Below the pieces are notes generated by a model that was given only the letters and a program-made list of their open reading frames with translations, was not told the DNA's origin and did not search any database. A stretch of 64,000 bases of DNA from Companilactobacillus zhachilii (GTDB taxonomy: Bacteria > Bacillota > Bacilli > Lactobacillales > Lactobacillaceae), in contig NZ_CP031933.2 in assembly GCF_003606365.2 (NCBI RefSeq), positions 1,302,001 to 1,366,000 of the forward strand, written 5' to 3'. This document shows, piece by piece, positions 347 through 62,810 of the stretch. The position numbers were made by a program, and so were the translations under genes. Numbering within the stretch: position 1 is the stretch's first letter; each line of letters begins with the position of its first letter.

Positions 347-709
347 TGTTGGTTGCCGTCTCTGGGTGCAAGAAATGTTGACGCTGTGGGGACCGGTTCG
401 AGCCGAAAAGCGGTCTCGAACCTCGATTTTGAACTTCGCAAAGTGCGCGAATTTCAAAACTCGTCCCGTGGTGTAATGGCTAAATCCATAACACCACCGT
501 CACTGCTGCCAACATTTCTTGCACCCAGAGACTAATACATTCTTTGTTTTTTATATGGTATAACTAATTGATTCGATAAAAGGATTACACATTATTTGAA
601 ATTGAATATAAGTAAAAGGTTAGATGTTTTTTCTGGATTTATTATACAAGGAAAATATATCTAGCTTTTTTTTATATTCGATTCTATAACCAAAATTGCG
701 AGAGAGACC
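347..709 (+). repeat. A-type structured repeat element, copy A1
   Basis: The core is at 358-532 and is bounded by GTCTCTGGGTGCAAGAAATG and its inverted complement. Inside it, GGGGACC pairs with GTCCC around hairpin P2 (arms TTCGAG/CTCGAA) and a conserved TTTTGAA/TTCAAAA hairpin P3. Hairpin P4 (GGTGTAATGG/CCATAACACC) follows. The right part (600-709) carries a second long hairpin and ends in a degenerate terminal repeat beginning GGTCTCTCTCGCAATTTTGG on the minus strand. No convincing protein is encoded. Stretches of 250-820 hold only this element and a half C repeat. Confidence 0.85.
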
Positions 710-824
710 GATTAGAGTCTGCCTCGTCAAATATTTTTCGGTTCTTCCCAGAAAAATAGTAACCGATTTCAATAATTTGCTACAATAGAGTAGATAATTA
801 ATTTATTTATGCGAGGATGATACA

Positions 825-1634
825 ATGCCAAAATATTTAGTATTTATGGATCTTGATGGAACTTTACTTTGTGATCATAAGCATATCTCTGTTCGTACCA
901 AGTCAACGATTGAACGTTTACAAAGACATGACATAATGTTTTATATTTCTACAGGTAGAATGTATGAATTGGCAAAGATTACTCAAGGTTTATTGAACCC
1001 CAATGTACATATGATTACGTCAAATGGGGCTGTTTTTGATGGACCTGCTGGTCAGGAGATCACTCATTTAGGGGGTAAAGCGGTCGAATTGGCGTATGAG
1101 GTTACGCAGGTCAACAAGTTACCAATGATGTTATTTACACCAGAAGAGGCCTACTTTACGGAAAAAATACCTCGTTTCATTGCTCAAAATACTGGTAATT
1201 TTGATGAAGCATTTGGATATAGAGAGATTAAAAGTTTTGCTGAATTAAAAGAAGTTGAGTCAGAAATAACTAATGGGGTCGTTTTGAGTCGAGGTAACAT
1301 GTCGGAACTCAATCAGGCCCGTGAAAAAATGGCGGAAACTAAATTGTTACGTTTGTCTTCATCTGGTGTTGATAATATCGAAATGATTCCTCTAAAGACA
1401 GACAAGGGGACAGCAGTCAGAAGGATTCAATTGGAACGTGGAGTGGACGCTGATCACACCTTTGTTTTCGGTGACGGAATGAATGATGTTGGTATGATGA
1501 AAGAAGCCAAGTATTCAGTTGCTATGGGCAACGCCTTGGCTGAAGTTAAAAAAATTGCCAATTATGAAACAGATACCAATGATAATGATGGTTTAGCTAA
1601 GTTTTTGGAGAACTTTTTTAAAGATGAAATGTAA
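825..1634 (+). CDS. Cof-type HAD-IIB sugar-phosphatase-like hydrolase
   Basis: This 269-residue protein is a haloacid-dehalogenase phosphatase of the Cof/YidA type, probably acting on a phosphorylated sugar or nucleotide in the cytosol. Motif I is MDLDGTL with nucleophile Asp9 and Asp11, motif II is the ISTGR segment, and the C-terminal GDGMNDVGMM supplies the Mg-binding acidic residues. The long insert between them is the C2-type cap. A GAGGATG ribosome binding site precedes the ATG. It appears to be monocistronic and ends at a C-type hairpin terminator. Three further Cof-type paralogues lie in the window, and the substrate is not predictable. Confidence 0.9.
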   Translation: MPKYLVFMDLDGTLLCDHKHISVRTKSTIERLQRHDIMFYISTGRMYELAKITQGLLNPNVHMITSNGAVFDGPAGQEITHLGGKAVELAYEVTQVNKLPMMLFTPEEAYFTEKIPRFIAQNTGNFDEAFGYREIKSFAELKEVESEITNGVVLSRGNMSELNQAREKMAETKLLRLSSSGVDNIEMIPLKTDKGTAVRRIQLERGVDADHTFVFGDGMNDVGMMKEAKYSVAMGNALAEVKKIANYETDTNDNDGLAKFLENFFKDEM

Positions 1635-1687
1635 GTTATCTGAGAAAAATTTCTTTAGCAATAACATGGATTTTTCCGCTTAAAACA

Positions 1688-1729
1688 AAATGGCACCAGC
1701 AATCCGATTTTGGATTACTGGTGCCATTG
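1688..1729 (+). terminator. C-type hairpin acting as terminator of the HAD gene
   Basis: Arms AATGGCACCAGCAATCC and GGATTACTGGTGCCATT enclose a GATTTT loop. T-rich sequence follows. It is preceded by the family flank TTTTTCCGCTTAAAACAAAA, so it is a member of the C repeat family. Confidence 0.75.
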
Positions 1730-1787
1730 TTTTGTTAGTTACTGTCATTGTTTTGTTAGTTACTGTCATTGTTTTGTTAGTTACTGT
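1725..1787 (+). repeat. Three perfect 21-bp tandem repeats
   Basis: The unit CATTGTTTTGTTAGTTACTGT occurs three times head to tail, with a decayed fourth unit following into the 3' end of the GNAT gene. The first unit starts inside the right arm of the hairpin terminator, which suggests slippage expansion of the terminator's own flank. Confidence 0.9.
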
Positions 1788-2434
1788 TATTGTATTGTTG
1801 AATGACTAATAATATAAAACTCTTCTTGACTAGGTTGCCATTTTTTTATCTTAGGTTCAAAACCTTTGTCGAATTGATCAATTTTTTCTTGATTGATTTC
1901 TAAGGCGGCACTCTCTTGATATGACCAATGATGGCCCTTCAATGAATCGGGAACTAACTCCTTCACTAGCATAGCGGTAGGATATGTCTGATTCATTGTT
2001 ACATTGTATTTATAGCAACTTTCAAAGCCACGACCAACATAATTACTTGGCATACCAAAAATGACAATTGCTTCGTAATTTAACTTGCGTGCAATTTTGA
2101 ATGATGCATCCAATAACTTCTTGCTATATCCTTGGCGTTGAAATTCCTTCTTGATACAGACAGGTCCGAAGGTAAGGATAGGTTTTACGTTGCCATTTTC
2201 ATCAGTCAAGGTAGCTTTGGTGTACATAACGTTACCGATAATTTGTCCATTCATCTCGACAATTAAGTCTAATTCGGGAATAAAATCCGGATGTGAACGT
2301 AAAATGTGTGTCAAATAATGTTCACCACAACCGGGGACATATAAATTCCAAAATGCTTCGCGTGTCATTTCTTCAACTGCTCGATAGTCAGCTGGTGTTT
2401 CGTTTCTAATAATAATGTTTTTATTTAAACTCAA
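1787..2434 (-). CDS. GNAT-family N-acetyltransferase
   Basis: The 215-residue product has a GNAT fold: an N-terminal IIIRNETPADYRAVEEM strand-helix, a central strand ending GPVCIKKEFQRQGYSKKLL, which is the acetyl-CoA pyrophosphate-binding Q/RxxGxG/A loop, and a following helix. It should transfer an acetyl group from acetyl-CoA to an amine, but the acceptor is unknown. The TTG start has AGGAGG 7-8 bases upstream. Its last codons run into DNA related to the 21-bp tandem repeats. A short leader ORF and a stem-loop lie just upstream, which could imply translational or attenuation control. Confidence 0.88.
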   Translation of the reverse strand: MSLNKNIIIRNETPADYRAVEEMTREAFWNLYVPGCGEHYLTHILRSHPDFIPELDLIVEMNGQIIGNVMYTKATLTDENGNVKPILTFGPVCIKKEFQRQGYSKKLLDASFKIARKLNYEAIVIFGMPSNYVGRGFESCYKYNVTMNQTYPTAMLVKELVPDSLKGHHWSYQESAALEINQEKIDQFDKGFEPKIKKWQPSQEEFYIISHSTIQ

Positions 2435-2462
2435 AATATTTTCCTCCTAAAAGTTAACAGAT

Positions 2463-2506
2463 CACTTTCGGAAGGTTTGATTAGAAATTGTCGCAAACCT
2501 TCCGGT
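2463..2506 (-). promoter_or_regulatory. Stem-loop between leader ORF and GNAT gene
   Basis: Arms GGAAGGTTTG and CAAACCTTCC flank a loop of about 14 bases. There is no T tract, so it is not an obvious terminator. It begins right at the stop codon of the 12-codon ORF and precedes the GNAT ribosome binding site. Confidence 0.5.
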
Positions 2507-2544
2507 TAGGCAACAATATCCAGGCTATTATTTGTATTTGTCAT
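2506..2544 (-). CDS. Possible 12-residue leader peptide (MTNTNNSLDIVA)
   Basis: A 12-codon ORF starts with ATG preceded by AAGGAG at good spacing. A TATAAT-like box (near 2570-2576) lies upstream. It is followed at once by a perfect 10-bp stem-loop and then the GNAT gene. This arrangement resembles leader-peptide control of some resistance genes, but it is inferred only from layout. Confidence 0.35.
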   Translation of the reverse strand: MTNTNNSLDIVA

Positions 2545-2586
2545 AAACGAACTCCTTAATCTTAATTATTGGTATTATATCATAAT

Positions 2587-3450
2587 TTATTTTTTAGTGC
2601 TCTTAGCCATTTTTTCACTGCTCTTAATGATAAATTGATGGAATAGTGTAATGAACTGTGGGTTCGTTAACATATCTGAATGTTGAGCATTTGAGCCCGT
2701 CAAAGTTATGAACATATAGTGTTTAATTTGGTCCTGATAAATAAACTTACCAGCATCAACACTGCTAAGAGGGACAATGCCGTCGTCAGTGTACTGTTCT
2801 GTGCCAGCAATAGAATAATAGCTCAATGATTTTGGCAGGTTGGCTTTATTTTTTATAAGTTGATCTAACATTTCTGTTCGTTCTGAATGACTTTTTTCTT
2901 CAAAATTATAGGGAGCTCCAACAGTCATTAAGTGTTTGATCTGGACTCGCTGATATTTCTGGAAGTAGTCCTCTAGAAAGTAAGTCCAAATAAGACTGCC
3001 ATTAGAATGACCAAAGGCATTAAATGTTTTGAAGTGATATTTTTGTTGTAAATCATTGAAAGCAATATTGAACCAAGCGGTTTGTTTTTTTACATTCTCC
3101 AAACCATCTTGATTATTTTCAAATCCAACAACGATGTAAGGATTCTTCTCCTTGCTGGAAATGTGACCACTGTAGCTTAAATGATTATCGGTACTAACAG
3201 TCACTTTTAAAACATCGTGATGTTCCTTGTAGCGGTTATTTACATTATTAATCAATCCATCTAACACATTATTGTCGGCATCACTTCCAGGAATCATAAT
3301 AATCGGTGCCATAGTTGGGTCTGGTTTGGCCGTTGAGATAGAATTCTTGTGTTGAGTCCACGAATATAAGAGGATTATTAATAGTAAGATAACGATTGAA
3401 GTTATAGTGAGATAACGACGTTTGGAATTGCTTTTGTTATGTTTACGCAT
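2587..3450 (-). CDS. Membrane-anchored/secreted alpha/beta hydrolase (DUF915-like)
   Basis: The 287-residue protein starts with basic residues and one hydrophobic helix (about residues 12-30), so it is exported or membrane-anchored. The hydrolase domain has the nucleophile elbow FGHSNGS and the PIIMIPGSDAD oxyanion strand. A late VSTDGIVPLSS-like stretch (here DDGIVPLSS) and a C-terminal His (NAQHSDML) complete a Ser-Asp-His triad. This matches the DUF915 cell-surface hydrolases common in lactobacilli, whose substrates are uncertain. It is transcribed towards the GNAT gene with a 150-bp gap. Confidence 0.85.
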   Translation of the reverse strand: MRKHNKSNSKRRYLTITSIVILLLIILLYSWTQHKNSISTAKPDPTMAPIIMIPGSDADNNVLDGLINNVNNRYKEHHDVLKVTVSTDNHLSYSGHISSKEKNPYIVVGFENNQDGLENVKKQTAWFNIAFNDLQQKYHFKTFNAFGHSNGSLIWTYFLEDYFQKYQRVQIKHLMTVGAPYNFEEKSHSERTEMLDQLIKNKANLPKSLSYYSIAGTEQYTDDGIVPLSSVDAGKFIYQDQIKHYMFITLTGSNAQHSDMLTNPQFITLFHQFIIKSSEKMAKSTKK

Positions 3451-3533
3451 TGGAGCTACCTTCTTAAATAGGGATTAACAAATGTCAAATTGATTATAAC
3501 GTTAAATTAAAAAAGATTTTATCAAAAAGGCTT

Positions 3534-3793
3534 AAATTTGGTTGGTTTCCGTCTCTGGGTACAAGAAATATTGGCACTGTGGGGACCGCCCGGAGCCAAG
3601 GTCTCCGAGCTCGATTTTGAACTTCGCAAAGTACGCGAATTTTAAAACTCGTTCCGTGGTGTAATGGCTAAAGCTATAACACCACCTTCACTGCTGCCAA
3701 TATTTCTTGTACCCAGAGACTAATGCATTTGTTATTTTTAATATAATGTAATTAACCGATTCAATAATAGTGCTGTATATATTTTAAATATGC
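3534..3793 (+). repeat. A-type structured repeat element, copy A2 (truncated)
   Basis: The core spans 3551-3720 with ends GTCTCTGGGTACAAGAAATA and its complement. The base change relative to other copies (GTGCAAG to GTACAAG) is matched by a compensating change in the far arm. P2 arms are CGGAG/CTCCG. Homology to the A element continues to about 3790, then switches into a C-type element, so the second hairpin module is missing. Confidence 0.85.
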
Positions 3794-4012
3794 AGCATGA
3801 ACTTCTAACAAAATATAATTTTTCCACTTAAACCAAACGAAGGGGCCGTGACATAACTATTTTTGTTTCAAATATGCAGCATAAACGTGCAACAAAACAT
3901 AGCTTTTTCCGCTTAAACCAAACAATACCCGCAATCCAAAATCGGATTACGGGTATTGTTTGCCTTAATGCTCGAAAGCTGACCATGTTTTGTCACACTC
4001 TCTCATTTTAAT
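3781..4012 (+). repeat. C-type repeat, duplicated flank plus hairpin terminator
   Basis: Two direct copies of an approximately 57-bp flank (ATATGCAGCAT...TTTTTCC.CTTAAACC) start near 3788 and 3870. The second runs into a hairpin with arms AACAATACCCGCAATCC and GGATTACGGGTATTGTT (3920-3960). The outer right flank TGTTTTGTCACACTCTCTC is itself an inverted relative of the left flank. It sits between two convergent-to-tandem minus-strand genes and probably terminates transcription. Confidence 0.75.
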
Positions 4013-4015
4013 ACA

Positions 4016-5404: not shown

Positions 5405-5547
5405 TAAAAACATCCCCTCAAAAATATTGTTGAATTAAGTAGAGTGGGAATCAATTTGAAATATATTTCGTGATAATAATGAAGGGTGAAAATTAAAGTG
5501 TTGTAAATTGGTCTGCAACTGGTACTTAATTCACTCTAATTTTAGTT

Positions 5548-5565
5548 TATCGAACCGGTTCGATA
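5548..5565. promoter_or_regulatory. Perfect 18-bp palindrome, probable LacI-family operator
   Basis: TATCGAACCGGTTCGATA is fully self-complementary with a CCGG centre. It lies about 145 bp upstream of the transporter start in an otherwise AT-rich gap. Its form is typical of LacI/GalR operators. Confidence 0.6.
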
Positions 5566-5616
5566 CCAAGAAAAATTAAAAACGTTATTAAAAAATAATA
5601 AATATTTGTTTGGTAT

Positions 5617-5792
5617 CCACCTCCAAGAGCAAGAAGTTTAGGTCGCTATGGGGACCGATAAAAGCCAAGGCCTTTTGTCTCGATTTTGAACCTCTCACAA
5701 ATCACGAGTTTCAAAATTCGTCCCGTGGTGTACGCACTAAAGTGCTAACGCCACCTGCACAGCGACCAAAATTTCTTGCTCTTTCCGGTTAG
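5617..5792 (+). repeat. B-type structured repeat, copy B1
   Basis: The core is bounded by CCTCCAAGAGCAAGAAGTTT and an inverted partner ending TCTTGCTCTTTCCGG. It shares with A copies the GGGGACC/GTCCC pairing, the TTTTGAA/TTCAAAA hairpin and the GGTGTA...AACGCC hairpin. P2 arms are AAAAG/CTTTT and P4 is GCACT/AGTGC, differing from other copies in step. The rest of the gap 5414-5972 holds the operator and AT-rich sequence. Confidence 0.85.
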
Positions 5793-6005
5793 TTCATTTT
5801 TTGTTTTTGAATCAATATTAAATAAATTTAATTATAAATTTACTCTTATTCATTTGATTAGATATTAGACTAATATTTTACTATTTAATTACATTTTAGT
5901 AACTTTTATTACCGTTCCTACACAGATGTGTAACTTTTAATCAAAATCAAAAAACTTGAATTATACTCCTCTATGTTGCGATGGCAACAAAAGGGAGAAG
6001 AGGTT

Positions 6006-7232: not shown

Positions 7233-7251
7233 GTTTTAATAAATACACACA

Positions 7252-7293
7252 AAAATAACCTTTCAAACTTGTAGTAGTTTGGAAGGTTATTTA
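7252..7293. terminator. Bidirectional terminator
   Basis: Arms AAATAACCTTTCAAAC and GTTTGGAAGGTTATTT are A-rich before and T-rich after, serving the convergent muramidase and HesB-like genes. Confidence 0.8.
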
Positions 7294-7301
7294 TTTAGTA
7301 A

Positions 7302-7712: not shown

Positions 7713-7748
7713 GGTTAAAGGTCCTTTCTAATACGGTATTTTATTAGC

Positions 7749-7774: not shown

Positions 7775-7902
7775 CTTTATTACAATTTTTAATATACATC
7801 ATTTGTGCCAAGCGTACAAATATTTAGCTTATAGTCTGAATTTAATTGAAAAAGAGTCCAGCTTAGTTAATAATCTAGCTATAAAGTAAACGGGGTATTA
7901 AT

Positions 7903-12883: not shown

Positions 12884-13306
12884 AAAATAGCCCCGGTAAT
12901 CCATAAATAAGGTTGTCTCTCAATTTTGGTTATAGAATTGAAAATAAAAAAGGCTAGGTATCTCTTCTGGAAATCCAGAAAAATATCTAGCCTTTTGCTT
13001 ACGTTCAATTTCAAATAATATAGCACTTTTTTATCGAATTAGTTAGTCACATCGTATTAAAAATAATAAATGTATTAGTCTCTGGGTGCAAGAAATGTTG
13101 GCAGCAGTGAAGGTGGCGCTGGCGCTTTAGCGCCTACACCACGGGACGAGTTTTGAAATTTGCGCACTTTGCGAAGTTCAAAATCGAGATTGGAGACCGC
13201 TCTCCGGATCCAATCGGTCCCCACAGCGCCAACATTTCTTGCACCCAGAGACGGCCAACTAGCCAAATTTAAGAAAGAACTCAAAATAGATTACTGGAGC
13301 TATTTG
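12884..13306. repeat. C-type hairpin split at its apex by A element A3
   Basis: The left arm AAATAGCCCCGGTAATC (about 12885-12901) and the right arm GATTACTGGAGCTATTT (about 13289-13305) match as inverted repeats at 15 of 17 positions, and the recurrent TAATCC/GATTA apex bases are present. They are separated by about 390 bp that is the whole A element. The simplest reading is insertion of A into the loop of a pre-existing C hairpin. Confidence 0.65.
12911..13280 (-). repeat. A-type structured repeat element, copy A3
   Basis: The core is at 13078-13252, minus strand. The element is bounded by GGTTGTCTCTCAATTTTGG on the left and, on the minus strand, GTTCTTTCTTAAATTTGG on the right, giving imperfect terminal inverted repeats. 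A long hairpin module (AAAAGGCTAG...CTAGCCTTTT, 12948-12996) is internal. P2 arms GATTGGA/TCCAATC and P4 arms GGCGCT/AGCGCC differ from other copies and remain paired. Confidence 0.88.
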
Positions 13307-17214: not shown

Positions 17215-18384
17215 ATGACTCTTAAAGGAATTAAACTTCGGATATACCCTAATGAATTCCAAATTCAACATATCGAAATGAACTTTGGTTGTGTTCGCAA
17301 AGTTTGGAATTTGATGTTATCCATGCAAAAAGATAGATATGAGAATAATCCTGACTGTAAATTCGTATCAAACTTTGATATGAATATCCTTTTACCTCTT
17401 TTGAAGAAGGAATATCCTTACCTGAAACAGGTAGAGAGCACTAGTCTACAGTGTGTTAATAAAGATTTGTCAGAAGCATTCAAAAAATTCTTTGAAGAAC
17501 ATACTGGATATCCAAGATTTAAAAGTAGAAAATATTCTCGTCAAAGTTACCAATCAAAATATGTGAATCATAATATAAAACAAATTAACGATTCCTATAT
17601 CAAACTTCCAAAACTTGGTGAAATGAAATTCAAGTGTGGTAGAGATATACCTGAGGTTATCAAGTCAGTTACCATTCGTAGGAGTCCAGCTGGTAAATAT
17701 TACGCTATGTTGACAGTCGAAGACGAAAACCAAGCATTCGATAAAACACAAGCACAAGTTGGACTAGATATGGGTGTAGCTGATTTAATTATCACGTCAG
17801 ACGCTATTAAGTTTCCAACTATTCGTTTTGATAAGCTCCTAGCTAAGAAGAAACTTAACTGGGAGCGTAAACTTGCTAGAAGACGATCACTTGCCGTCAA
17901 GGACAGAGCAAAAACTAAAAAGATTGGCTTAATTGAACCAAGGCCACTTGAAGACTATAAAAATGTTCAAAAGGCTAAACGGATGGTTGCTAAATATTCA
18001 GAAAAAGTTGCTAGTCAACGTAGAGACTATATCCATAAGATAACTACAAAACTTGTACAAGATTATGATGTTATAACGATTGAAGATTTGAAATCCAGCA
18101 ATATGTTAAAGAATCATAATCTAGCTAGAGTGATTGCCAATCAATCGTGGAGAATGATTAGGACAATGCTTGAATACAAGTGTGAGTGGTATGGCAAAAA
18201 GTTAGTCGTTGTGAATCCCTTCAAAACGAGTCAATACTGTGCCGAATGTGGGTATGACGATGGTAAACATGAATTGAATATTCGCCAATGGATATGTCCA
18301 AATTGCAATTCGAACAATGACCGTGATATCAATGCAAGCAAAAACATACTCAAGAAAGGCTTGGAACAAGCCTTAGTAAAATAG
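17215..18384 (+). CDS. tnpB: TnpB RNA-guided nuclease (IS605 OrfB)
   Basis: The 389-residue protein has the TnpB layout: N-terminal helix-turn-helix-like region, beta-barrel, and a split RuvC domain with Asp185 (GLDMGVADL), Glu290 (TIEDLKSSN) and Asp371 (NNDRDINASKN). A zinc ribbon Cys342/345/361/364 lies between the last two. All catalytic positions look intact, so it is probably active. TnpB cleaves DNA next to a TAM, guided by RNA from the element's right end, favouring retention of the element. GAGGGGAGG precedes the ATG. Confidence 0.93.
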   Translation: MTLKGIKLRIYPNEFQIQHIEMNFGCVRKVWNLMLSMQKDRYENNPDCKFVSNFDMNILLPLLKKEYPYLKQVESTSLQCVNKDLSEAFKKFFEEHTGYPRFKSRKYSRQSYQSKYVNHNIKQINDSYIKLPKLGEMKFKCGRDIPEVIKSVTIRRSPAGKYYAMLTVEDENQAFDKTQAQVGLDMGVADLIITSDAIKFPTIRFDKLLAKKKLNWERKLARRRSLAVKDRAKTKKIGLIEPRPLEDYKNVQKAKRMVAKYSEKVASQRRDYIHKITTKLVQDYDVITIEDLKSSNMLKNHNLARVIANQSWRMIRTMLEYKCEWYGKKLVVVNPFKTSQYCAECGYDDGKHELNIRQWICPNCNSNNDRDINASKNILKKGLEQALVK

Positions 18385-28665: not shown

Positions 28666-28844
28666 GCCGCCTACAAGAGCAAGAAATTTAGGTCGCTATG
28701 GGGACCGACTTGAGCCAAGGTCTCAAGTCTCGATTTTGAGCCTTACTGAGAACCGTAAGTCTCAAAAGTCGTCCCGTGGTGTAAGCGCTGAAGCGCCAAC
28801 GCCACCTGCACAGCGACCTAAATTTCTTGCTCTTTCCGGCTGGT
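28666..28844 (+). repeat. B-type structured repeat, copy B2
   Basis: Outer arms AGAGCAAGAAATTTAGGTCG and CGACCTAAATTTCTTGCTCT are perfectly complementary. P2 arms are GACTTGAG/CTCAAGTC and P4 arms GCGCT/AGCGC. The left terminal extension seen in B4 is absent. It lies 50 bp from element A4, so the 840-bp gap 28534-29377 is filled by one B and one A element. Confidence 0.88.
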
Positions 28845-28896: not shown

Positions 28897-29267
28897 GGTT
28901 CTTTCTCAATTCTGATTATAGAATACAATAAAAAAAGCTAGATATGCTTTCCTGGTATGATAAATCCAGAAAAAGCATCTTGCCTTTTATTCATATTCGA
29001 TTTCAAATAATGTGTCATCTTTTTATCGAATCAATTAGTTATACTGTATAAAAAACGACGAATATATTAGTCTCTGAGTGCAAGAAATATTGGCAGCAGT
29101 GAAGGTGGCGTTATGGCTTCAGCCATTACACCACGGGACGAGTTTTGAAATTCGCGTACCTTGCGAAGTTCAAAATCGAGACGAAAGACCTTGGCTTTCG
29201 TCGGTCCCCACAGCGCCAACATTTCTTGCACCCAGAGACGGCAACCAATCAAATTGAAGAAAGAACC
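28897..29267 (-). repeat. A-type structured repeat element, copy A4
   Basis: This 371-bp copy best defines the ends: GGTTCTTTCTCAATTCTGAT on the left and GGTTCTTTCTTCAATTTGAT on the minus strand at the right. The core is at 29070-29239. P2 arms are GACGAAAG/CTTTCGTC and P4 ATGGCT/AGCCAT. The hairpin module lies at 28932-28988. I see no clear target-site duplication. Confidence 0.88.
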
Positions 29268-45064: not shown

Positions 45065-45241
45065 CTAGCCGGAAAGAGCAAGAAATTTAGGTCGCTGTGC
45101 AGGTGGCGTTAGCACTTTAGTGCTTACACCACGGAACGAATTTTGAAATTCGCGTACTTTGCGAAGTTCAAAATCGAGTCTTGAGACCTTGGCTCAAGAC
45201 GGTCCCCATAGCGACCTGAATTTCTTGCTCTTGGAGGTGGC
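45065..45241 (-). repeat. B-type structured repeat, copy B3
   Basis: Outer arms AAGAGCAAGAAATTTAGGTC and GACCTGAATTTCTTGCTCTT are complementary apart from one base. P2 arms GTCTTGAG/CTCAAGAC and P4 arms GCACT/AGTGC are perfect. It ends 19 bp before the -35 box of the riboflavin operon promoter. The gap 44980-45563 also holds the FMN riboswitch. Confidence 0.88.
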
Positions 45242-45288: not shown

Positions 45289-45312
45289 CGCTTTTGAAAA
45301 CTGAATAATGAT

Positions 45313-45437
45313 TTCTTCGGGGCAGGGTGTAATTCCCGACCGACGGTAACAACTAAATGTTGAAGTCCGTGACCCGCGTTTTGCGGTGGATCCAGTGTGA
45401 GTCTGGAACCGACAGTATAGTCTGGATGGGAGAAGAA
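45313..45437 (+). promoter_or_regulatory. FMN riboswitch (RFN element)
   Basis: The conserved RFN blocks are visible in order: TTCGGGGCAGGGTGTAATTC, CCGACCGACGGTAACA, GTCCGTGACCCGCG, GGTGGATCCAGTGTGAGTCT, GGAACCGACAGTATAGTCTG and GATGGGAGAAG. FMN binding should favour the downstream terminator at 45517-45548 and switch off the rib operon. Confidence 0.97.
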
Positions 45438-45516
45438 AAATAAGATTTTTTCGTACTCAGTACGTTTATTTAAGATTGTCTTCGAAAGAAGTCTTATTTG
45501 GCTTAATAAAAATAAT

Positions 45517-49376: not shown

Positions 49377-49466
49377 AAGTGAATTTTCCTCCTATGACTA
49401 GGTTATTAGAATTTACTATTTTTTTACATTTGATTTACTTACGAATTGCTTACAAATATGTAAGGA

Positions 49467-49811
49467 AACTCGTGGTGCTAGTTAAATATGCCGCCTCCAA
49501 GAGCAAGAGATTCTGGTCGCTATGGGGACCGATTCGAGCCAAAGAGCGGTCTCGAATCTCGCTTTTGAACCTCGCAAAAACCGCGAGTTTCAAAAGTCGT
49601 CCCGTGGTGTAAAGGATAAATCCCTAACGCCACCTGCACAGCGACCAGAATCTCTTGCTCTTTCCGGCTAGGTTATTCGTTGTTTCTAAATCAATAGTGA
49701 GTAATTTTCAATATTATTATGTTACTGGTAATTAAAGTCATAGGATAAGGGGGGATATTTGGATTTTAAAATTAATTTTAAATATAGTTAAAAATCAACT
49801 AGTACTACACG
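49467..49811 (+). repeat. B-type element copy B4, flanked by 10-bp direct repeat
   Basis: The core (49490-49671) has outer arms AAGAGCAAGAGATTCTGGTC and GACCAGAATCTCTTGCTCTT. P2 is GATTCGAG/CTCGAATC. The full element extends from CGTGGTGCTAGTT on the left to CTAGTACTACACG on the right, an imperfect terminal inverted repeat. TATGTAAGGA occurs at 49457-49466 and again at 49812-49821, consistent with a target-site duplication. The right arm is homologous over about 130 bp to that of B6. Confidence 0.85.
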
Positions 49812-49837
49812 TATGTAAGGATATATTATTGCAAAAA

Positions 49838-51508: not shown

Positions 51509-51518
51509 CCGTAAATGT

Positions 51519-51696
51519 GCCGCCTCCAGGAGCAAGAGATTTTGGTCACTATGGGGGACCGACAAAAGTCAAGGTCTTTTGTCTCGCTTTTGAATCTCGA
51601 ACAAACCGCGAGTTTCAAAATTCGTCCCGTGGTGTAAACACTAAAGTGTTAACGCCACCTGCACAGTGACCAAAATCTCTTGCTCCTTCCGACTAG
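51519..51696 (+). repeat. B-type structured repeat, copy B5
   Basis: Outer arms AGGAGCAAGAGATTTTGGTC and GACCAAAATCTCTTGCTCCT pair, including a compensated G/C to the usual A/T change. P2 is GACAAAAG/CTTTTGTC and P4 is AACACT/AGTGTT. An extra G in TGGGGGACC is present. The gap 51509-51890 holds only this repeat and a terminator. Confidence 0.87.
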
Positions 51697-51824
51697 GGTA
51701 TTCGTTGTACTTGTTGTACTTAATGAATGAGGATTTTTAATGGCTCGGATATGTAAGTGTTGATTATATATTTCTGAATTTACCGGAGTATCAATTTTGA
51801 AAGATAATTTGTAACCATATATAT

Positions 51825-56082: not shown

Positions 56083-56102
56083 ATAAAAATGTAGGTGAAA
56101 AC

Positions 56103-56548: not shown

Positions 56549-56580
56549 AATTGGCAATAGTCTACTTCTAACTTATCAAA

Positions 56581-56905
56581 CGGTGGTGCTAATTGATTTT
56601 TAACTATGGATTTAGAATCCAAATATAACCCCGTATCCTATAAATTTAGTCATCAGTGACGTAATAATACTGAAAATTGTTCACTATTGATTTAGAAACA
56701 AAGAATAAACTAGCCGGAAAGAGCAAGAGATTTTGGTCGCTGTGCAGGTGGCGTTAACACTTTAGTGTTTACACCACGGGACGACTTTTGAAACTCGCGA
56801 TTTGTGCGAGGTTCAAAAGCGAACCGAAAGACCTTGGCTTTCGGTGGTCCCCATAGCGACCAAAATTTCTTGCTCTTGGAGGCGGAACATTTAACTAGCA
56901 CCGCG
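56581..56905 (-). repeat. B-type element, copy B6
   Basis: The core (56710-56884) has arms AAGAGCAAGAGATTTTGGTC and GACCAAAATTTCTTGCTCTT. P2 is CCGAAAG/CTTTCGG and P4 AACACT/AGTGTT. Terminal repeats are CGGTGGTGCTAATT on the left and GCGGTGCTAGTTAAA on the minus strand at the right. The element lies between the EIIA pseudogene and the mannosidase gene, ending 45 bp before the latter, and fills most of the 400-bp gap. Confidence 0.88.
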
Positions 56906-56950
56906 CGTTATCTACTAATTTGTACAATGCGTTATTTGAAAGGAATTGAT

Positions 56951-59578
56951 ATGAAAAAAGTACATGTGATTCAACATACCCACTGGGATTTCGAATGGTA
57001 CTTTACTAGAAATGAAGCTATTGTTCAGTTTGTTTATCATATGGATGAGGTTTTCGCAGCTTTAGAGAAACAACAAGTCGATTACTATCTGTTAGACGGT
57101 CAGATGAGTATCTTAGACGATTACTTGGATGCTTATCCAGAAAAACGAGCAGAATTACGTAAGTGGATCAAGGCCGGCCGTTTATTTATTGGACCATGGT
57201 ATACCCAAACTGATGAGTTGATTATTACAGGTGAATCAATTATTCGTAATTTATGTTTAGGTATGCAAATGGCTCAAGATTTAGGTGGTGGTCAAAAGAT
57301 AGGTTACTTACCAGATTCTTTTGGTCAAGGTGCCGATATGCCTAAAATTTATAATGGCATGGATATTCATGATGCGGTTTTCTGGAGAGGTCTATCAGCT
57401 GATAAGACTAAAGCACGCGAATTTAACTGGAAGTCTGAAGACGGTTCTGATGTTTCAGTTGTTAATATTAAAGATGGGTATTTTGTAGGTGTTGGTTTAA
57501 TTTATGATGACAACGTCAAGGAAGTTATGAAGACCATTGTCGATGGAACTACTTTGGATGACATTGCCTTTCCAGTTGGTGGTGATCAACGATATGTTGA
57601 TTATAATTTAAAAGATCGAATTGATTTTTATAATCAACAGCTGATAGATCAGGATACACAACTGGTCGAAAGCAATTATCCACAATTATTTACTGAAATT
57701 CATAAGAGCAAGCAACAGTTGGATGACGTTTCAGGTGAGTTTATAAGCAGTTCAGTTTCAAAAATTCACCGTTCGATTTATTCTTCAAGATATGATCAAA
57801 AGTATTTGAATGACAAACTTGAACGTCGGATGATTTATCAATTGGAACCGCTGATGGCTATGGCTGATCGTGTGGGCATTCCTTACAAAAAGTCGTTGCT
57901 AGATAAGATATGGAAATTAATTGTCCGCAATCAGGCACATGATAGCGCTGGCGGATGTAACAGTGATAAAACTAATCAAATTATTTTGGAAAGATTACGA
58001 GAAGCTGACCAGTTATCCTATTCAACAGTCGATTATTTGACTCGAAAAATTGCGGAGTCAGAGGTTCATAAACAAGCCAACCAATTGACGTTTTTCAATA
58101 CGTTACCGTTCGCGGTTCAAAAGAATGTTAAATTCCAAATTTCATTAAAGAGTAAGAATTTTGAAATTTTTAACGGCGATGAGAAACTTTCATTTGATGT
58201 ATGGAAAACGACTAAAAAATACCACGGTCAAATTAAGCGGGATGAATCACAATACGCTGAAGAAGATTATTATTACGTTTATGATTGTTCCGCTAAGGTC
58301 ACTATTCCAGCACTTCAATGGATTAATTTACAAGTTAAACCATTGTCTGCAAGTGAAATTGCTGTAGTTAAAGCAGATGATTCCAAATTAATTAAGAATC
58401 ATCATTATCAGGTTTCTTATCATGATGGTCAGTTAGATTTATTGAATTTGCAAACTAGTGAAAAAATAGCTGATTTCATTAAATTTATTGACGATGGTGA
58501 TGAAGGTGATACGTATGATTATTCGCCAGCATATCAAGATCGAATTATAGATTTAGATTTTTCTAACGCCGAGATTATGTGTAAATCTGGTCAAAATCAA
58601 CAAAACATGGTAATTCAAGGCGATTGGTTATTACCACAGAATCTAAAGAGTCGTGCGGAAGATGGACAAGATAAAGTAATAAAGTATGAATTAAATATTT
58701 CTTTAGATGATAGTAATTTAATTAACGTTCATTTGTTAATTGATAATCAGGTTGAAGATCACCGGATGCGTGCGATTATTAAAACAAATACAAGTACAAA
58801 TAAATATTCATATGCTGATACTGGATTTGGGTATATTGCACGTCCAACAACAGATCCACATTTACATGATTGGAAAAAGATTGGCTGGCATGAGGAACCA
58901 ACTTCTATTTATCCAATGCTGCATTATGTTAATTTGCATGACAATCACAGCAATGTAACGGTTTATGCTAAAGGAATTAAGGAATATCAAATTGTTGGGA
59001 ATGATTTTAATCAAGTTGCATTGACATTATTCAGGTCAGTTGGCTTTTTAGGACGCCCAGATTTACAGCGGCGACCTGGGGTTGCATCTGGAAATCAATT
59101 TACATATATTCCAACACCTGATAGTCAATTGAAAGAGCAATTGCATTTTAAGTTTGCAATCGAACTTAACCAAGAATTTGATCCAGCTCAGATTATGAAA
59201 CAATTTCAGAAGTATGCTATCAGCAATCCGTACTATCAAATACAAGATTTGAATCAATTTACAAATACTTTGAAATACTTTGTCATGCACGATTTGGATA
59301 AAAAGGTTCAATCCGTTCCATTTTTGGAGATTAATAGTGATAATTTAGTGTTTAGTAGTTTGACTGAGAGTAAAGATGAGTCAGGTTGGTTGCTACGGAT
59401 TTATAATCCCAATAAATTTATTTGTGACGGTGATAACGATTTAGTGCTAAAAGAGGCTCGTGTTATGAGTTTCACTGACTTTACTGGTAAAATCGTTAAG
59501 TGTCTAGGTAAAAAGCAAATGGTTTCGTTAGGCTTGTTTAAACCTGGAGAAATTAAGACGATAAAAGTCAACAAATAA
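56951..59578 (+). CDS. GH38 alpha-mannosidase (MngB-like)
   Basis: The 875-residue protein shows GH38 motifs: zinc ligands His11 and Asp13 in QHTHWDFEW, nucleophile Asp122 in YLPDSFGQGADMP, and the later NQAHDSAGGCNSDKTN with zinc His. Beta-rich C-terminal domains follow. It cleaves alpha-mannosides, probably intracellularly since no signal peptide exists. With the PTS, a phosphorylated mannosyl substrate such as mannosylglycerate phosphate is plausible. The ATG at 56951 has GAAAGGAATTGAT upstream. Element B6 separates it from the PTS genes. Confidence 0.9.
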   Translation: MKKVHVIQHTHWDFEWYFTRNEAIVQFVYHMDEVFAALEKQQVDYYLLDGQMSILDDYLDAYPEKRAELRKWIKAGRLFIGPWYTQTDELIITGESIIRNLCLGMQMAQDLGGGQKIGYLPDSFGQGADMPKIYNGMDIHDAVFWRGLSADKTKAREFNWKSEDGSDVSVVNIKDGYFVGVGLIYDDNVKEVMKTIVDGTTLDDIAFPVGGDQRYVDYNLKDRIDFYNQQLIDQDTQLVESNYPQLFTEIHKSKQQLDDVSGEFISSSVSKIHRSIYSSRYDQKYLNDKLERRMIYQLEPLMAMADRVGIPYKKSLLDKIWKLIVRNQAHDSAGGCNSDKTNQIILERLREADQLSYSTVDYLTRKIAESEVHKQANQLTFFNTLPFAVQKNVKFQISLKSKNFEIFNGDEKLSFDVWKTTKKYHGQIKRDESQYAEEDYYYVYDCSAKVTIPALQWINLQVKPLSASEIAVVKADDSKLIKNHHYQVSYHDGQLDLLNLQTSEKIADFIKFIDDGDEGDTYDYSPAYQDRIIDLDFSNAEIMCKSGQNQQNMVIQGDWLLPQNLKSRAEDGQDKVIKYELNISLDDSNLINVHLLIDNQVEDHRMRAIIKTNTSTNKYSYADTGFGYIARPTTDPHLHDWKKIGWHEEPTSIYPMLHYVNLHDNHSNVTVYAKGIKEYQIVGNDFNQVALTLFRSVGFLGRPDLQRRPGVASGNQFTYIPTPDSQLKEQLHFKFAIELNQEFDPAQIMKQFQKYAISNPYYQIQDLNQFTNTLKYFVMHDLDKKVQSVPFLEINSDNLVFSSLTESKDESGWLLRIYNPNKFICDGDNDLVLKEARVMSFTDFTGKIVKCLGKKQMVSLGLFKPGEIKTIKVNK

Positions 59579-59589
59579 AGAGGGAAATT

Positions 59590-60393
59590 ATGGCCAATGA
59601 AGTTAATGACCTATTTTTATTAATAGAATCAAAAAGAAATGATTTTACTTCAGTGGAACAAGTGATTGCAGATTATTTTATAGCTAAACGAAAGATTTTA
59701 AGTATTAGTGACCTGGCAAAAGAAATTATTGTATCGGCACCTTCGATAACAAGGTTTTGTAAAAAGCTTGGTTTGAACAATTATAAGGAGTTAATTTTTC
59801 TTTATAGCTTGTCCTTGAGGGATCAAACTGTAGATGCAAGCATGATTTCTACTCCTGTGACAGCTAGTTATCATGCTTTGGCAACTAGAAGTGACGCTTC
59901 ATATCGCAGTCAGGCAGTTACTAACTTCTGTGATTTAATTTATACAACCAAAATAATTTTATTTTGGGGTTTAGGTTTCAATTCCTTCGCAGGCCAGGAT
60001 TTTACGTTCAAGTTTTCACGCTTCGGAAAATTTATTCAAGTCTATGGTGATCAGCATTCAATTCTTTTATCAGCGGCTTCGGCAAGTGCGGATAATTTGA
60101 TTTTAATTTCATCACTTAGTGCTAAAGACCCAAATATTTTGAAAGCTATTAAGCTAGGCAAGGAAAACGGAGCACACTTTTTATTAATAACTGCAAATGA
60201 AGATTCACCATTTATTGATTACTGTGAGGAAACAATTTATGCGGCTAGTTTTTCACCGGATGAAGCGTTAGGAAGTGTATCGCCTCAAGTACCAATTTTG
60301 ATTCAATTGGATATTATTTATTCGAAATATGTCAGTTTACACAAAGATAATGTTGATAAATGGCTACTCTCAGAAAATATTTTGAAAAATTGA
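59590..60393 (+). CDS. RpiR-family regulator (HTH + SIS domain)
   Basis: The 267-residue protein has an N-terminal RpiR helix-turn-helix (ISDLAKEIIVSAPSITRFCKKLG) and a C-terminal SIS domain that binds phosphosugars (ILFWGLGFNSFAGQDF; LILISSLSAKDPNILKAIKLG). It lies 11 bp after the mannosidase and 10 bp before the GH1 gene, so it is likely the operon's own sensor of the PTS-made sugar phosphate. AGAGGGAAATT precedes the ATG. Confidence 0.9.
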   Translation: MANEVNDLFLLIESKRNDFTSVEQVIADYFIAKRKILSISDLAKEIIVSAPSITRFCKKLGLNNYKELIFLYSLSLRDQTVDASMISTPVTASYHALATRSDASYRSQAVTNFCDLIYTTKIILFWGLGFNSFAGQDFTFKFSRFGKFIQVYGDQHSILLSAASASADNLILISSLSAKDPNILKAIKLGKENGAHFLLITANEDSPFIDYCEETIYAASFSPDEALGSVSPQVPILIQLDIIYSKYVSLHKDNVDKWLLSENILKN

Positions 60394-60403
60394 GGATAGA
60401 TAA

Positions 60404-61777
60404 ATGATAAAATTCCCAAAGGACTTTCTCTGGGGGGCTGCTACTTCGGCTCCACAAACAGAAGGTCACAGCTTATTGGATGGTAAGTCAGCAACAACGT
60501 GGGATAAATGGTTTGAAATGAATCCTGAAAAATTTAATGATAATCAAGGTCCTGAGAATACTTCAAACACATACGAGCTGTTTGCAGAAGATGTTCAAAA
60601 TATGAAAAAGATTGGTATGAATTCATTTCGAACCTCTATTTCATGGGCAAGATTATTACCAGATGGTAAGACGGTTAATGAAGAGGCAGTAAAGTTTTAT
60701 CGCACCTACTTTCAAATGATGCTTGATAATGGAATTGAACCAATCATGAATCTCTTCCATTTTGATATGCCTTGGTGGTTAATGGAACGTGGTGGTTGGG
60801 AGAATCGAGAGTCAGTAGATGATTTTGCTAATTATGCCCAAGTAGCGTTTTAACAATTTGGTGATTTAGTAAAAAATTGGTCGACGTTTAACGAACCGAC
60901 TGTCCATATTGAATGTGGTTATTTATATGGTTATCATTATCCAGCAGTAGTTGATTTAAAACGAGCTATCCAGGTAGGTTACAATACTTTGATGGCACAC
61001 GTTAAAGCGGTTCAGAAATACCGCGAGATGAAGCAGACAGGTAAAATTGGTATTATTTTGAATGTTCTGCCTGCATATAGCCGTAGTGATGATCCTGAAG
61101 ATTTAGAGGCTAAGCGAATTTCTGATTTGATTAGTAGCAGAAGTTTTTTGGATCCAGTCGTTTTAGGACATATTCCGAACGAATTAGTTAAATTACTGGC
61201 AGATAATGAGTTACTACCTGAGATTGATGAAAATGATAAGCAATTGATTATTGATAATACGGTAGATTTCGTTGGTATTAATTATTATCAACCACGGAGG
61301 GTACAGGCACCTAGTAATCCCCATAAACCTGCAAAAATGCCGGAAGATTGGTTTGAAGCATATGATTGGCCTGATAAAAGAATCAATCCTTATCGCGGTT
61401 GGGAAATTTATCCACCGGCACTATATGATATCTCGATAATGATGCGTGACGAGTATGGTAATATTCCTTGGTATGTTAGTGAAAACGGTATGGGTGTTGC
61501 TGACGAGGAACGTTTTAAAGACGATACGGGGATGATTGATGATCAGTATCGAATTGATTTTATGAAGGAACATTTAGAACAATTAGCAAAGGGTATAGCC
61601 GCCGGTAGTAATTGTTTTGGCTATCATATGTGGACTTTTGTTGACTGTTGGTCTTGGTTAAATGGTTACCGAAATCGCTATGGCTTTTTCCGAGTTGATT
61701 TGAATGATAATTATCGAAGAACGGTTAAAAAAAGTGGATTATGGTTTAAACAGTTAACGGAAAATAATGGTTTTTGA
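60404..61777 (+). pseudogene. GH1 family glycosidase (6-phospho-beta-glucosidase type) with in-frame stop
   Basis: One continuous frame of 457 codons covers a whole GH1 barrel: KFPKDFLWGAATSAPQTEG at the start, acid/base Glu164 in TFNEPTVH, nucleophile Glu360 in YVSENGMG, and a C-terminal NRYGFFRVD. Codon 150 is TAA (60851-60853), reading VAF-stop-QFGDLVKNW. Family members usually have Lys or similar there, so a single AAA-to-TAA change is likely. All other positions look intact, suggesting recent loss or an error. It ends the glycoside operon. Confidence 0.9.
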
Positions 61778-61789
61778 GAATAATGTTAT

Positions 61790-61831
61790 AAAAAATGCTT
61801 GTTGGATGATTTCTTCTGACAAGCATTTTTA
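61790..61831 (+). terminator. Terminator of glycoside operon
   Basis: Arms AAAAATGCTTGT and ACAAGCATTTTT around an 18-base loop. The rest of the 296-bp gap to 62073 is AT-rich with no gene seen. Confidence 0.8.
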
Positions 61832-62073
61832 TCTTTTAACACAAATCTTTAAATATAGACTAGAGCCTAGGAATGCACTAGTAAAACACGATATTTTATG
61901 TTTTTGGTTAATATAGTTTTATGATTTAAATTATCTTTTTTTGTTAAGAATAAAAGTAGCTGAGCTAAAACCCACCTATAATCGACTTTTAATAGTATTA
62001 TAAAAATAAACTAATACTTTGCATAATTAAATTCATATGCTATTATATTAAAAAGAAATGAGGTGGAGGATTT

Positions 62074-62424
62074 ATGACAGCACAATCAAATAAATATCGT
62101 ATATTAGAAACTAACGTTCTCTTAGAAAGATTTGTAACTTATAACGAGGTTTTTACAGAATATTTTAAGACGATGAAAATTATCGAACGAGGGGAAGCGT
62201 TGAGATATGAAACATATTCACGCTTAGCCGATAATTATATTTCAAATATCCATCGTTTTATGAAGTTGTGTATTTCTTACCTTGATAAATATCATCTTCA
62301 AAACAGTGTGATGGCTGAAAAATTAAACAATTACTTTGTTGATTTAATTGACGCCCTTAACTGTATGGATACTGATAATAATCTAATCAATCACTTGAGT
62401 TTAGAAGAAGCTCGTTCAAAATAA
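62074..62424 (+). CDS. Hypothetical helical protein (116 aa)
   Basis: The 116-residue protein appears all-helical and soluble (NVLLERFVTYNEVFTEYFKT; YISNIHRFMKLCISYLDKY) with no recognised motif. GAGGTGGAGGATTT gives a strong ribosome binding site for the ATG. It stands alone between the glycoside operon and an A element. Confidence 0.65.
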   Translation: MTAQSNKYRILETNVLLERFVTYNEVFTEYFKTMKIIERGEALRYETYSRLADNYISNIHRFMKLCISYLDKYHLQNSVMAEKLNNYFVDLIDALNCMDTDNNLINHLSLEEARSK

Positions 62425-62438
62425 AAGCAAGTCAAGGC

Positions 62439-62810
62439 GAATTCCTCAATTCGATTAATTTTTTCATTAAATAAAAAGGGCTAGGTATTTCTTCTGGGAT
62501 AAATCCAGAAAAATATCTAGCCTTTTGCTTATGTTCAATTTCGAATAAGATAGCACTTTTTTATCAAATTAGTTAGTTACATCGTATAAAGAATAACGAA
62601 TATATTAGTCTCTGGGTGCAAGAAATGTTGGCAGCAGTGAAGGTGGCGTTATGGCTTTAGCCATTACACCACGGGACGAGTTTTGAAATTCGCGTACTTT
62701 GCGAAGTTCAAAATCGAGATTGGAGACCGCACTCTGGCTCCAATCGGTCCCCACAGCACCAACATTTCTTGCACCCAGAGACGGTAGATAACCAAAGTTA
62801 AGAAAGAACC
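62439..62810 (-). repeat. A-type structured repeat element, copy A5
   Basis: The core is at 62608-62782 and the hairpin module (GGGCTAGGTATTTCTTCTGG, then its partner) at 62477-62526. The right terminus on the minus strand is GGTTCTTTCTTAACTTTGG; the left terminus is decayed. P2 arms are GATTGGAG/CTCCAATC and P4 ATGGCT/AGCCAT. The 540-bp gap before prmA is mostly this element. Confidence 0.87.

What the first reader, a model, noticed from the sequence alone, without database searches (positions are those of the whole stretch)
358..62782. Eleven copies of a structured 170-180 bp repeat whose stems covary between copies
Cores lie at 358-532, 3551-3720, 13078-13252, 29070-29239, 62608-62782 (type A) and 5617-5792, 28666-28844, 45065-45241, 49490-49671, 51519-51696, 56710-56884 (type B). 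All read as one fold. A 20-plus-bp outer stem encloses a GGGGACC/GTCCC stem around hairpins P2 and P3, then a GGTGTA...AACGCC hairpin P4. P2 arms change in step: TTCGAG/CTCGAA, CTTGAG/CTCAAG, CGAAAG/CTTTCG, TTGGA/TCCAA, CAAAAG/CTTTTG. P4 arms do the same (ATGG/CCAT, GCGC/GCGC, GTGC/GCAC). Types A and B have unrelated outer-stem sequence (GGGTGCAAGAAATG versus AGAGCAAGAAATTT families) yet the same inner architecture. Compensated changes in four stems are strong evidence for selection on folded RNA or single-stranded DNA. I know no named family that matches.
Basis: seen in the sequence. Interest (0 to 1): 0.92.

Follow-up and report, generated by a model that had tools for sequence, protein, structure and literature searches.

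The report
Mobile DNA repeats with cloverleaf ends
A lactic acid bacterium carries hundreds of copies of a short DNA element that folds into a cloverleaf, sits between genes and often comes as mismatched mirror pairs; the fold seems to be kept while the element spreads but not after it has landed, so it looks like a mobile element rather than a working RNA gene.

Summary
In detail: all 11 cores lie at the stated places, share one fold and covary strongly. They belong to a large family: 231 strict-pattern copies in the 2.71 Mb home genome, 275 profile hits in 1.26 Mb sampled, and relatives across Companilactobacillus and in some Levilactobacillus and Lactiplantibacillus. No Rfam match overlaps a core in the sequences scanned; strict or blastn searches of phages, plasmids and viral contigs gave nothing.

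The 180-bp core is not the whole unit. 63 of 65 close neighbours are convergent. One such 530-bp unit is missing from all 21 relatives in which both flanks were found. Pairs show no target duplication and no ORF over 96 codons; partners avoid being alike. Y1 transposase is absent from the two genomes richest in strict copies.

Best reading: a non-autonomous mobile element with folded DNA ends; enzyme unknown; a new variant of a known kind.

The parts
352..537 (+). Core A1 (type A)
   Evidence: 181.4 bits; a type A end at 686-708 with 4 mismatches
3545..3725 (+). Core A2 (type A)
   Evidence: 183.3 bits
5613..5794 (+). Core B1 (type B)
   Evidence: 181.2 bits
12911..13281 (-). Larger type A unit, 371 bp between its two terminal repeats (2 and 5 mismatches to the motif), with a terminator-like hairpin (by eye) and one core
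13073..13258 (-). Core A3 (type A)
   Evidence: 179.7 bits
28663..28845 (+). Core B2 (type B); left member of the only convergent pair in the window
28897..29267 (-). Larger type A unit, 371 bp between terminal repeats (2 and 6 mismatches), carrying core A4 and lying beside B2; so this pair may be a chance neighbour rather than a two-core unit
29065..29245 (-). Core A4 (type A)
   Evidence: 192.2 bits
45063..45244 (-). Core B3 (type B), 64 bp before the FMN riboswitch
   Evidence: 198.9 bits
49471..49811 (+). Larger type B unit, 341 bp, ends CGTGGTGCTAGTTAA (49471-49485) and AACTAGTACTACACG (49797-49811); direct repeat TATGTAAGGA at 49457-49466 and 49812-49821
49487..49673 (+). Core B4 (type B); genome G029 lacks window 49478-49644 here but keeps the right part
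51516..51698 (+). Core B5 (type B); no core at this site in the six relatives aligned
56582..56905 (-). Larger type B unit, 324 bp between end motifs (3 and 1 mismatches); site without the unit in the five relatives aligned
56708..56889 (-). Core B6 (type B)
   Evidence: 198.9 bits
62603..62788 (-). Core A5 (type A); a type A end at 62788-62810
   Evidence: (191.9 bits)

Best explanation
This is a family of short non-autonomous mobile DNA elements of Lactobacillaceae. The 182-position core is a structured terminus: a long outer stem, an inner GGGGACC/GTCCC stem carrying two hairpins, and a further hairpin. The mobile unit is either two unlike cores facing inward (GCCGYC...CTAG - spacer - CTAG...GRCGGC; 294-707 bp, median 539) or one core with about 150 bp of inner flank (roughly 325-380 bp). 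Units inserted between genes, often just after a stop codon; two-core units left no detectable target duplication. SHOWN: shared fold, covariation, hundreds of copies, convergent unlike pairs, empty sites in relatives, intergenic placement. INFERRED: an enzyme supplied in trans recognises the folded DNA (cruciform or single strand) rather than a long sequence. Either only copies with intact stems are copied onward, or arms are corrected against each other during copying, so stems stay paired along spreading lineages while settled copies decay. The enzyme is not identified.
For: Mobility: the pair unit at L098:15929-16460 is missing in all 21 loci (21 genomes; 29 loci compared) in which both flanks were found, with -9 to 129 bp between the flanks against 535-566 bp at home. 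B6 and B5 sites lack the core in the five and six relatives aligned. Copies: 231 by strict pattern, 275 in 1.264 Mb by profile. Unit: 63 of 65 neighbours closer than 400 bp are convergent at home, 75 of 84 in fetched relatives. Partners at least 80% identical: 1 of 60 pairs against 10.8 expected; 0 of 2000 re-pairings as low. Ends: conservation starts sharply at TGCCG (209 copies that could be anchored). Constraint while spreading: home copies at least 96% identical (17 comparisons) differ by 2.47 one-sided and 0.35 compensated stem changes each; at 80-85% (5,314) by 3.47 and 9.11; at 50-60% (1,862) by 7.07 and 22.15. At equal identity (85-90%) copies at the same site in two species show more one-sided and fewer compensated changes (4.33 and 4.60, 15 comparisons) than copies at different sites (3.06 and 6.45 at home; 3.03 and 6.28 between species). 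Placement: 0 of 212 units lie inside a called ORF; outer ends facing a gene's 3' end are within 30 bp of it in 52 of 120 cases, against 143 of 629 control intergenic points.
Against: No mobilising enzyme is known: Y1_Tnp is absent from G000 and G005. Of the longest ORF in each of 28 convergent gaps of 400-4000 bp I classified 20; two are mobile-element genes, each seen once: a TnpB-like protein in L089 and a group II intron reverse transcriptase in L114. Movement was not observed. 93 of 212 units could be anchored in fetched relatives; 61 had an occupied same site and 35 an empty one, in loci mostly fetched because they hold copies; occupied sites may be old insertions or reused sites. Conserved mismatches (a T-G at one P4 pair in 68 of 115 copies) would be erased by free arm correction. 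103 of 149 single-core units show neither larger terminal repeat. One single-core unit (B4) does have a 10-bp direct repeat. Comparisons are not independent, and binning by identity itself limits compensated changes in the closest bins; at 90-93% identity compensated (3.45) already exceed one-sided (3.19) at home.
Confidence: 0.7

Rival explanations
1. It is a functional RNA family (small RNA genes or a 3'-UTR element), and stem pairing is kept by selection on the transcript.
For: Very stable fold and strong covariation; placement just after stop codons in many cases; read on the complementary strand the wobble bias has the RNA-like direction, 345 G-U to 144 A-C at home and 500 to 186 in relatives, in every helix.
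Against: Hundreds of copies; insertion polymorphism; one-sided changes dominate among near-identical copies. At pairs conserved in at least 93% of copies the wobble bias is weak and reverses in relatives (G>A 33 v C>T 20 at home, 14 v 23 in relatives), although at the 85% threshold it persists (68 v 31 and 47 v 42). tRNAs give 35 G-U to 0 A-C. No Rfam match on a core.
Confidence: 0.1
2. It is a portable two-way transcription terminator or mRNA 3'-end protector kept by the host because it seals gene ends.
For: A stable stem is followed by a conserved T-rich inner flank (CTAGTTTATTC...); outer ends facing a gene's 3' end are within 30 bp of it in 52 of 120 cases; a pair would act from both sides.
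Against: At the clean empty site the gene keeps its own terminator-like hairpin (by eye). Outer ends face gene starts as often as gene ends (135 v 120). In the closest comparisons pairing is not maintained in place. A terminator does not need a multi-helix cloverleaf.
Confidence: 0.12
3. Stem pairing is kept by a mutational process alone: arm-to-arm correction of imperfect palindromes during replication, with no selection for the fold.
For: Of 3429 cells that depart from the commonest pair in 259 home copies, 2706 are other Watson-Crick pairs, with few wobble intermediates.
Against: Some mismatches and a T-G persist across copies; the same architecture recurs with differing sequence in other genera; near-identical copies keep one-sided changes uncorrected.
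Confidence: 0.2
4. It is a REP/REPIN-type or IS200/IS605-related element moved by a Y1 transposase, with or without TnpB.
For: Palindromic, intergenic, high copy, mirror dimers with unlike members and no target duplication resemble REP dimers (PMC3733652 passages). One TnpB-like gene lies between two convergent cores (L089:1771-2940).
Against: No Y1_Tnp in G000 or G005. The core beside that TnpB belongs to a type A unit that starts 126 bp after the gene, so the arrangement may be chance; TnpB (PF01385) is absent from 13 of 36 genomes, among them G009 and G015 with at least 74 and 67 model matches. No significant replication-strand bias (86 of 149, p 0.07).
Confidence: 0.1

Closest known systems
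EFAR, Enterococcus faecalis repeats (recalled; paper not held)
   Same: About 170 bp, intergenic, folds into joined stem-loops, high copy in a lactic acid bacterium; as recalled, a miniature insertion sequence that targets stem-loop sites.
   Different: Sequences could not be compared. The model found no match at 1e-8 outside the home family among 395 Lactobacillales genomes (only 6 candidates per genome scored with strict filters, and whether E. faecalis was included is unknown). Convergent paired units are not part of the recalled description.
REP dimers, BIMEs and REPINs (PMC3733652, passages read)
   Same: Mirror-image dimers, preference for unlike partners, intergenic, no internal gene; no target duplication here.
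   Different: REPs are 20-40-bp hairpins tagged GTAG or CGTC; these cores are 182-position cloverleaves, and no Y1 gene is present in G000 and G005.
bcr1 of the Bacillus cereus group (table row and reference title seen in PMC2267715; the rest recalled)
   Same: A structured repeat of 147-167 bp with mobile-element traits, specific to one bacterial group.
   Different: bcr1 makes a short target duplication (recalled); two-core units here show none. No convergent pairing is recalled for bcr1.
MITEs in general (PMC10969869, passages read)
   Same: Non-coding, short, inverted termini, AT-rich intergenic sites; some single-core units have extra short terminal inverted repeats.
   Different: No target duplication for pairs; the terminus is a folded 182-position domain whose sequence drifts with compensation; no parent insertion sequence found.

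Membership tests
Rfam RNA families (release 15) | Match at or above the curated gathering score | tested here: not met
   Window and six loci with cores: one FMN riboswitch and two tRNAs, none on a core.
MITE | Short non-coding unit present as an insertion and absent at empty sites | tested here: met
   longest ORF in 63 pair units 96 codons, median 52.
MITE | Terminal inverted repeats | tested here: met
   Pairs: outer ends GCCGYC / GRCGGC. Of 149 single-core units 9 have both, 30 one and 103 neither of the two larger repeats; 7 too near an edge.
MITE | Target site duplication | tested here: not met
   Pairs: longest flanking direct repeat 4.57 bp on average v 4.61 when flanks are re-paired, 61 pairs. 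Exception among singles: B4 has TATGTAAGGA on both sides; other singles not tested.
MITE | Related autonomous insertion sequence | tested here: inconclusive
   In 28 convergent gaps of 400-4000 bp the only ORF resemblances were one same-site pair and two MFS transporters 32% alike; one TnpB-like and one group II intron gene occur once each. No ORF of 120 codons between a type A end and its core in the 10 loci fetched of 37 sites.
REP / REPIN | 20-40-bp hairpin tagged GTAG or CGTC at one end | tested here: not met
   Core model has 182 positions and six helices.
REP / REPIN | Mirror dimers | tested here: met
   63 of 65 close neighbours convergent.
REP / REPIN | Y1 (RAYT-type) transposase in the genome | tested here: not met
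   PF01797: 0 matches in G000 and G005; 18 of 36 genomes of the genus have one.
EFAR | Sequence and fold homology to E. faecalis repeats | not tested
   Reference sequences and paper not at hand.
bcr1 | Sequence homology and short target duplication | not tested
   No bcr1 sequence fetched; known here only from PMC2267715 passages and recall.

The most novel reading that the evidence does not exclude
A transposition system of its own: the mobile unit is bounded by two unlike 180-nt cloverleaf DNA folds recognised by shape, inserts beside gene ends without target duplication, and is moved by an enzyme of no recognised transposase type; the folds drift freely in sequence as long as they stay paired while spreading.
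Probability: 0.3. Interest if true: 0.75.

Novelty: new variant of a known kind. Interest (0 to 1): 0.5.

Why it matters
Stem covariation is usually read as proof of a functional RNA. Here covariation is strong, yet the copies seem constrained only while they spread, and this can be tested by comparing compensated and one-sided changes by copy age. The family is also abundant (275 cores of about 182 bp in 1.264 Mb, about 4% of a sample partly chosen for having copies), so it matters for annotation, assembly and gene-end biology in food lactobacilli, and it points to an unidentified enzyme that may recognise DNA by shape.

Tried and rejected
Riboswitch or T-box relation: a T-box-like look of one hairpin was considered by eye and dropped; Rfam gives nothing on a core.

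Y1 transposase: absent from G000 and G005.

Autonomous copy between convergent cores: 28 gaps of 400-4000 bp. The blastp comparison found two resemblances, one same-site pair (L084/L132) and L286/L119 at 32%, which are MFS transporters. Of the longest ORF in each gap I classified 20 of 28 with Pfam; 18 are ordinary or regulatory genes, one is TnpB-like and one a group II intron reverse transcriptase. The TnpB case is kept as a lead, not a claim: the core after it belongs to a type A unit that starts 126 bp past the gene, and TnpB is missing from 13 of 36 genomes.

Replication-strand bias: with a wrongly assumed terminus 94 of 149, p 0.002; the skew profile puts the terminus between 1.46 and 1.50 Mb and the corrected test gives 86 of 149, p 0.07; dropped.

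I assign no functional strand.

Terminator targeting: terminator-like sites lie within 60 bp upstream of 22 of 126 outer ends of pairs, 17 of 149 left ends and 1 of 149 inner ends of singles, against 1.5% of random points; the control includes coding DNA, so this is a lead only.

Mean partner identity was distorted by a zero given to short overlaps; one search repeats it without that (0.676 v 0.710; 0 of 2000 re-pairings as low).

In-place compensation: many same-site copies in two species differ more than their flanks, so they are not taken as simple orthologues.

Earlier descriptions: searches listed none that I could recognise from titles and abstract starts; several lists were capped (20 of 83, 20 of 4,407, 10 of 184), and most subscription journals are not held.
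Full report
OBSERVATION. Two cores folded singly have z-scores of -12.95 and -10.55, with 0 of 200 shuffles as good. In 43 copies from the same genome the consensus has 65 pairs, 39 of which show changes on both sides. Against shuffled partners, pairing is 98.1% v 87.0%, double-changed cells 322 v 82 and covariation score 0.350 v 0.133, 0 of 500 shuffles reaching any; sliding the partners drops pairing to 47.5% or less.

EXTENT. The window is G000:C1:1302001-1366000 of a 2,714,973-base genome. The strict pattern GGGGACCN{50,80}CGTYCCGTGGTGTA occurs 231 times (118 forward, 113 reverse; reversed-pattern control 0). A profile built from 115 copies finds 275 copies in 1.264 Mb, 260 of them over 150 model positions; part of that sample was chosen for having copies. 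The strict pattern occurs in 8 of 35 other genomes of the genus and 0 of 24 sampled outside it. The covariance model R1 matches 32 of 36 genomes of the genus, the home genome included, at E 1e-3 with at most 74 candidates scored per genome. Weak matches near 1e-10 need caution, because R1 also matches the antisense of real cores at about 1e-8 to 1e-13. In 395 genomes of the order, the home genome included, 18 match at 1e-8, in 6 of 80 genera, all of the home family; only 6 candidates per genome were scored with strict filters, so this is a lower bound. A named-genome scan with the strict pattern returned 118 stretches, 80 of them listed: seven Companilactobacillus species, nine Levilactobacillus species and Lactiplantibacillus herbarum. 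Hits in G005 and G027 near contig starts have the same positions as in C. nantensis and C. insicii records, so the home genus is Companilactobacillus. One core gave no blastn match among plasmids or phages, and the strict pattern none among viral contigs.

UNIT. Of 65 neighbours closer than 400 bp in the home genome, 63 are convergent, 0 tandem forward, 1 divergent and 1 tandem reverse; in fetched relatives 75 of 84 are convergent. The 63 pair units are 294-707 bp long (median 539) with spacers of 29-344 bp, and their longest ORFs have a median of 52 and a maximum of 96 codons. Partners are unlike: 1 of 60 pairs is at least 80% identical against 10.8 expected, and 0 of 2000 re-pairings are as low. 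The two largest sequence clusters (208 and 46 of 259 copies) pair with each other 28 times, the larger with itself 28 times, the smaller with itself once, others 3. Conservation begins sharply at TGCCG on the outer side (209 copies anchored) and runs about 18 bases past CTA on the inner side (188 anchored). Some single cores sit in larger units with their own short terminal repeats: 371 bp at 12911-13281 and 28897-29267, 341 bp at 49471-49811, 324 bp at 56582-56905. Of 149 single-core units, 6 have both type A ends, 3 both type B ends, 30 one such end, 103 neither, 7 too near an edge. The window's only pair (B2, A4) may simply be a type A unit that landed beside B2.

EMPTY SITES. The pair unit at L098:15929-16460 is absent from all 21 loci, of 29 compared, in which both flanks were found: -9 to 129 bp between flanks there against 535-566 bp at home. 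At home it lies between a stop codon and a terminator-like hairpin, read by eye. B6 is absent in the five relatives aligned, and no core is present at the B5 site in the six aligned, though some hold other sequence there. At B4, genome G029 lacks window 49478-49644 but keeps the right part. Pairs have no target duplication: 4.57 bp v 4.61 bp when flanks are re-paired, 61 pairs. Single unit B4 is flanked by a 10-bp direct repeat.

PLACEMENT. 0 of 212 units are spanned by a called ORF. Outer ends that face a gene's 3' end are within 30 bp of it in 52 of 120 cases (control 143 of 629); those that face a gene's start are that close in 13 of 135 (control 163 of 570). Gene calls are simple ORFs of 100 codons or more, so distances are approximate.

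HOW THE FOLD EVOLVES. If a transcript were under selection, G-U should be tolerated and A-C not. 22 tRNAs give 35 and 0 (ARAGORN picks paired columns, which favours pairing). On the complementary strand the ratio is RNA-like in direction, but at pairs conserved in at least 93% of copies it is weak and reverses between data sets. More telling is the dependence on divergence. Home copies at least 96% identical differ by 2.47 one-sided and 0.35 compensated changes (17 comparisons); at 93-96% by 3.30 and 1.67 (118); at 90-93% by 3.19 and 3.45 (291); at 80-85% by 3.47 and 9.11 (5,314); at 50-60% by 7.07 and 22.15 (1,862). One-sided changes stay at a few per comparison while compensated ones accumulate. 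Binning by identity limits compensated changes in the closest bins, so the fairer control is same-site against different-site copies at equal identity. At 85-90% the same-site copies show 4.33 one-sided and 4.60 compensated (15 comparisons), against 3.06 and 6.45 for home copies at different sites. The four same-site comparisons at 93% or more show 10 one-sided, 2 compensated and 1 other double change. I read this as decay of settled copies and constraint, or arm correction, along lineages that spread. The data do not separate selection at mobilisation from correction; conserved mismatches speak for some selection.

SAME-SITE COPIES. 93 of 212 units could be anchored in fetched relatives; 61 had an occupied and 35 an empty same site in at least one locus. 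Most relatives' loci were fetched because they carry copies, so this is not a rate. At occupied sites the two copies are 57% to 98% identical while flanks are about 79-95% (63 comparisons, a few of them the same site fetched twice). At one site with 94% flank identity the two species carry plainly different cores. Reuse of gene-end sites or replacement is likely.

WHAT MOVES IT. Unknown. PF01797 (Y1) is absent from G000 and G005, the genomes with most strict-pattern copies, and present in 18 of 36 of the genus. In 28 convergent gaps of 400-4000 bp no gene family recurs beyond one same-site pair and two MFS transporters 32% alike. One gap holds a TnpB-like gene (L089:1771-2940) and one a group II intron reverse transcriptase (L114:6064-7461) among 20 ORFs classified. 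The TnpB gene is 92% identical to one in the window at 17215-18384 that has no core near it, and the core after it belongs to a type A unit starting 126 bp past the gene; TnpB is absent from 13 of 36 genomes. I keep it as a lead. No significant replication-strand bias remains after correcting the terminus.

KNOWN RELATIVES. Passages were read in PMC3733652 (REP dimers and heterodimers), PMC2267715 (bcr1 and Efa-1 in tables), PMC2229807 and PMC10969869 (MITEs). EFAR is recalled. The searches listed no description of this family that I could recognise; several lists were capped. It works like a structured MITE or REP dimer, but it misses defining features of both (target duplication for pairs; hairpin size, tag and Y1 gene for REPs), so I file it as a new variant of a known kind.

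Noticed in passing
window 45309-45441: FMN riboswitch (RF00050, 119 bits), followed by ORFs from 45564 that are probably a riboflavin operon (not checked); core B3 lies 64 bp before it.
   Followed up: no
window 17215-18384: TnpB-like gene (389 codons), 92% identical to the one between two convergent cores in L089; the home genome has two such genes and no Y1 transposase.
   Followed up: partly
L114 6064-7461: Group II intron reverse transcriptase gene between two convergent cores in C. nantensis.
   Followed up: no
L045-L054: A second sub-family (GCCGTCCTCC...GGAACG...CCGGACTAG in most of these) with similar architecture but different conserved letters, in other species of the genus.
   Followed up: partly
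G000, 37 sites of GGTTCTTTCTYAAYTTTGGTTATAGA: The type A terminal repeat occurs 37 times (up to 2 mismatches); 9 of the 10 loci fetched have a core nearby. The motif recalls ISL3-type ends (recalled, untested).
   Followed up: partly
L096:6621-7161 against L176: Mosaic pair: one core nearly the same in two species, the other replaced.
   Followed up: partly
G000 between 1.46 and 1.50 Mb: GC skew changes sign, marking the likely replication terminus, off the half-way point of the genome.
   Followed up: no
L027, just right of the core at 1464-1644: A short tandem series of CCGGNAGATAAC-like units directly after a core.
   Followed up: no
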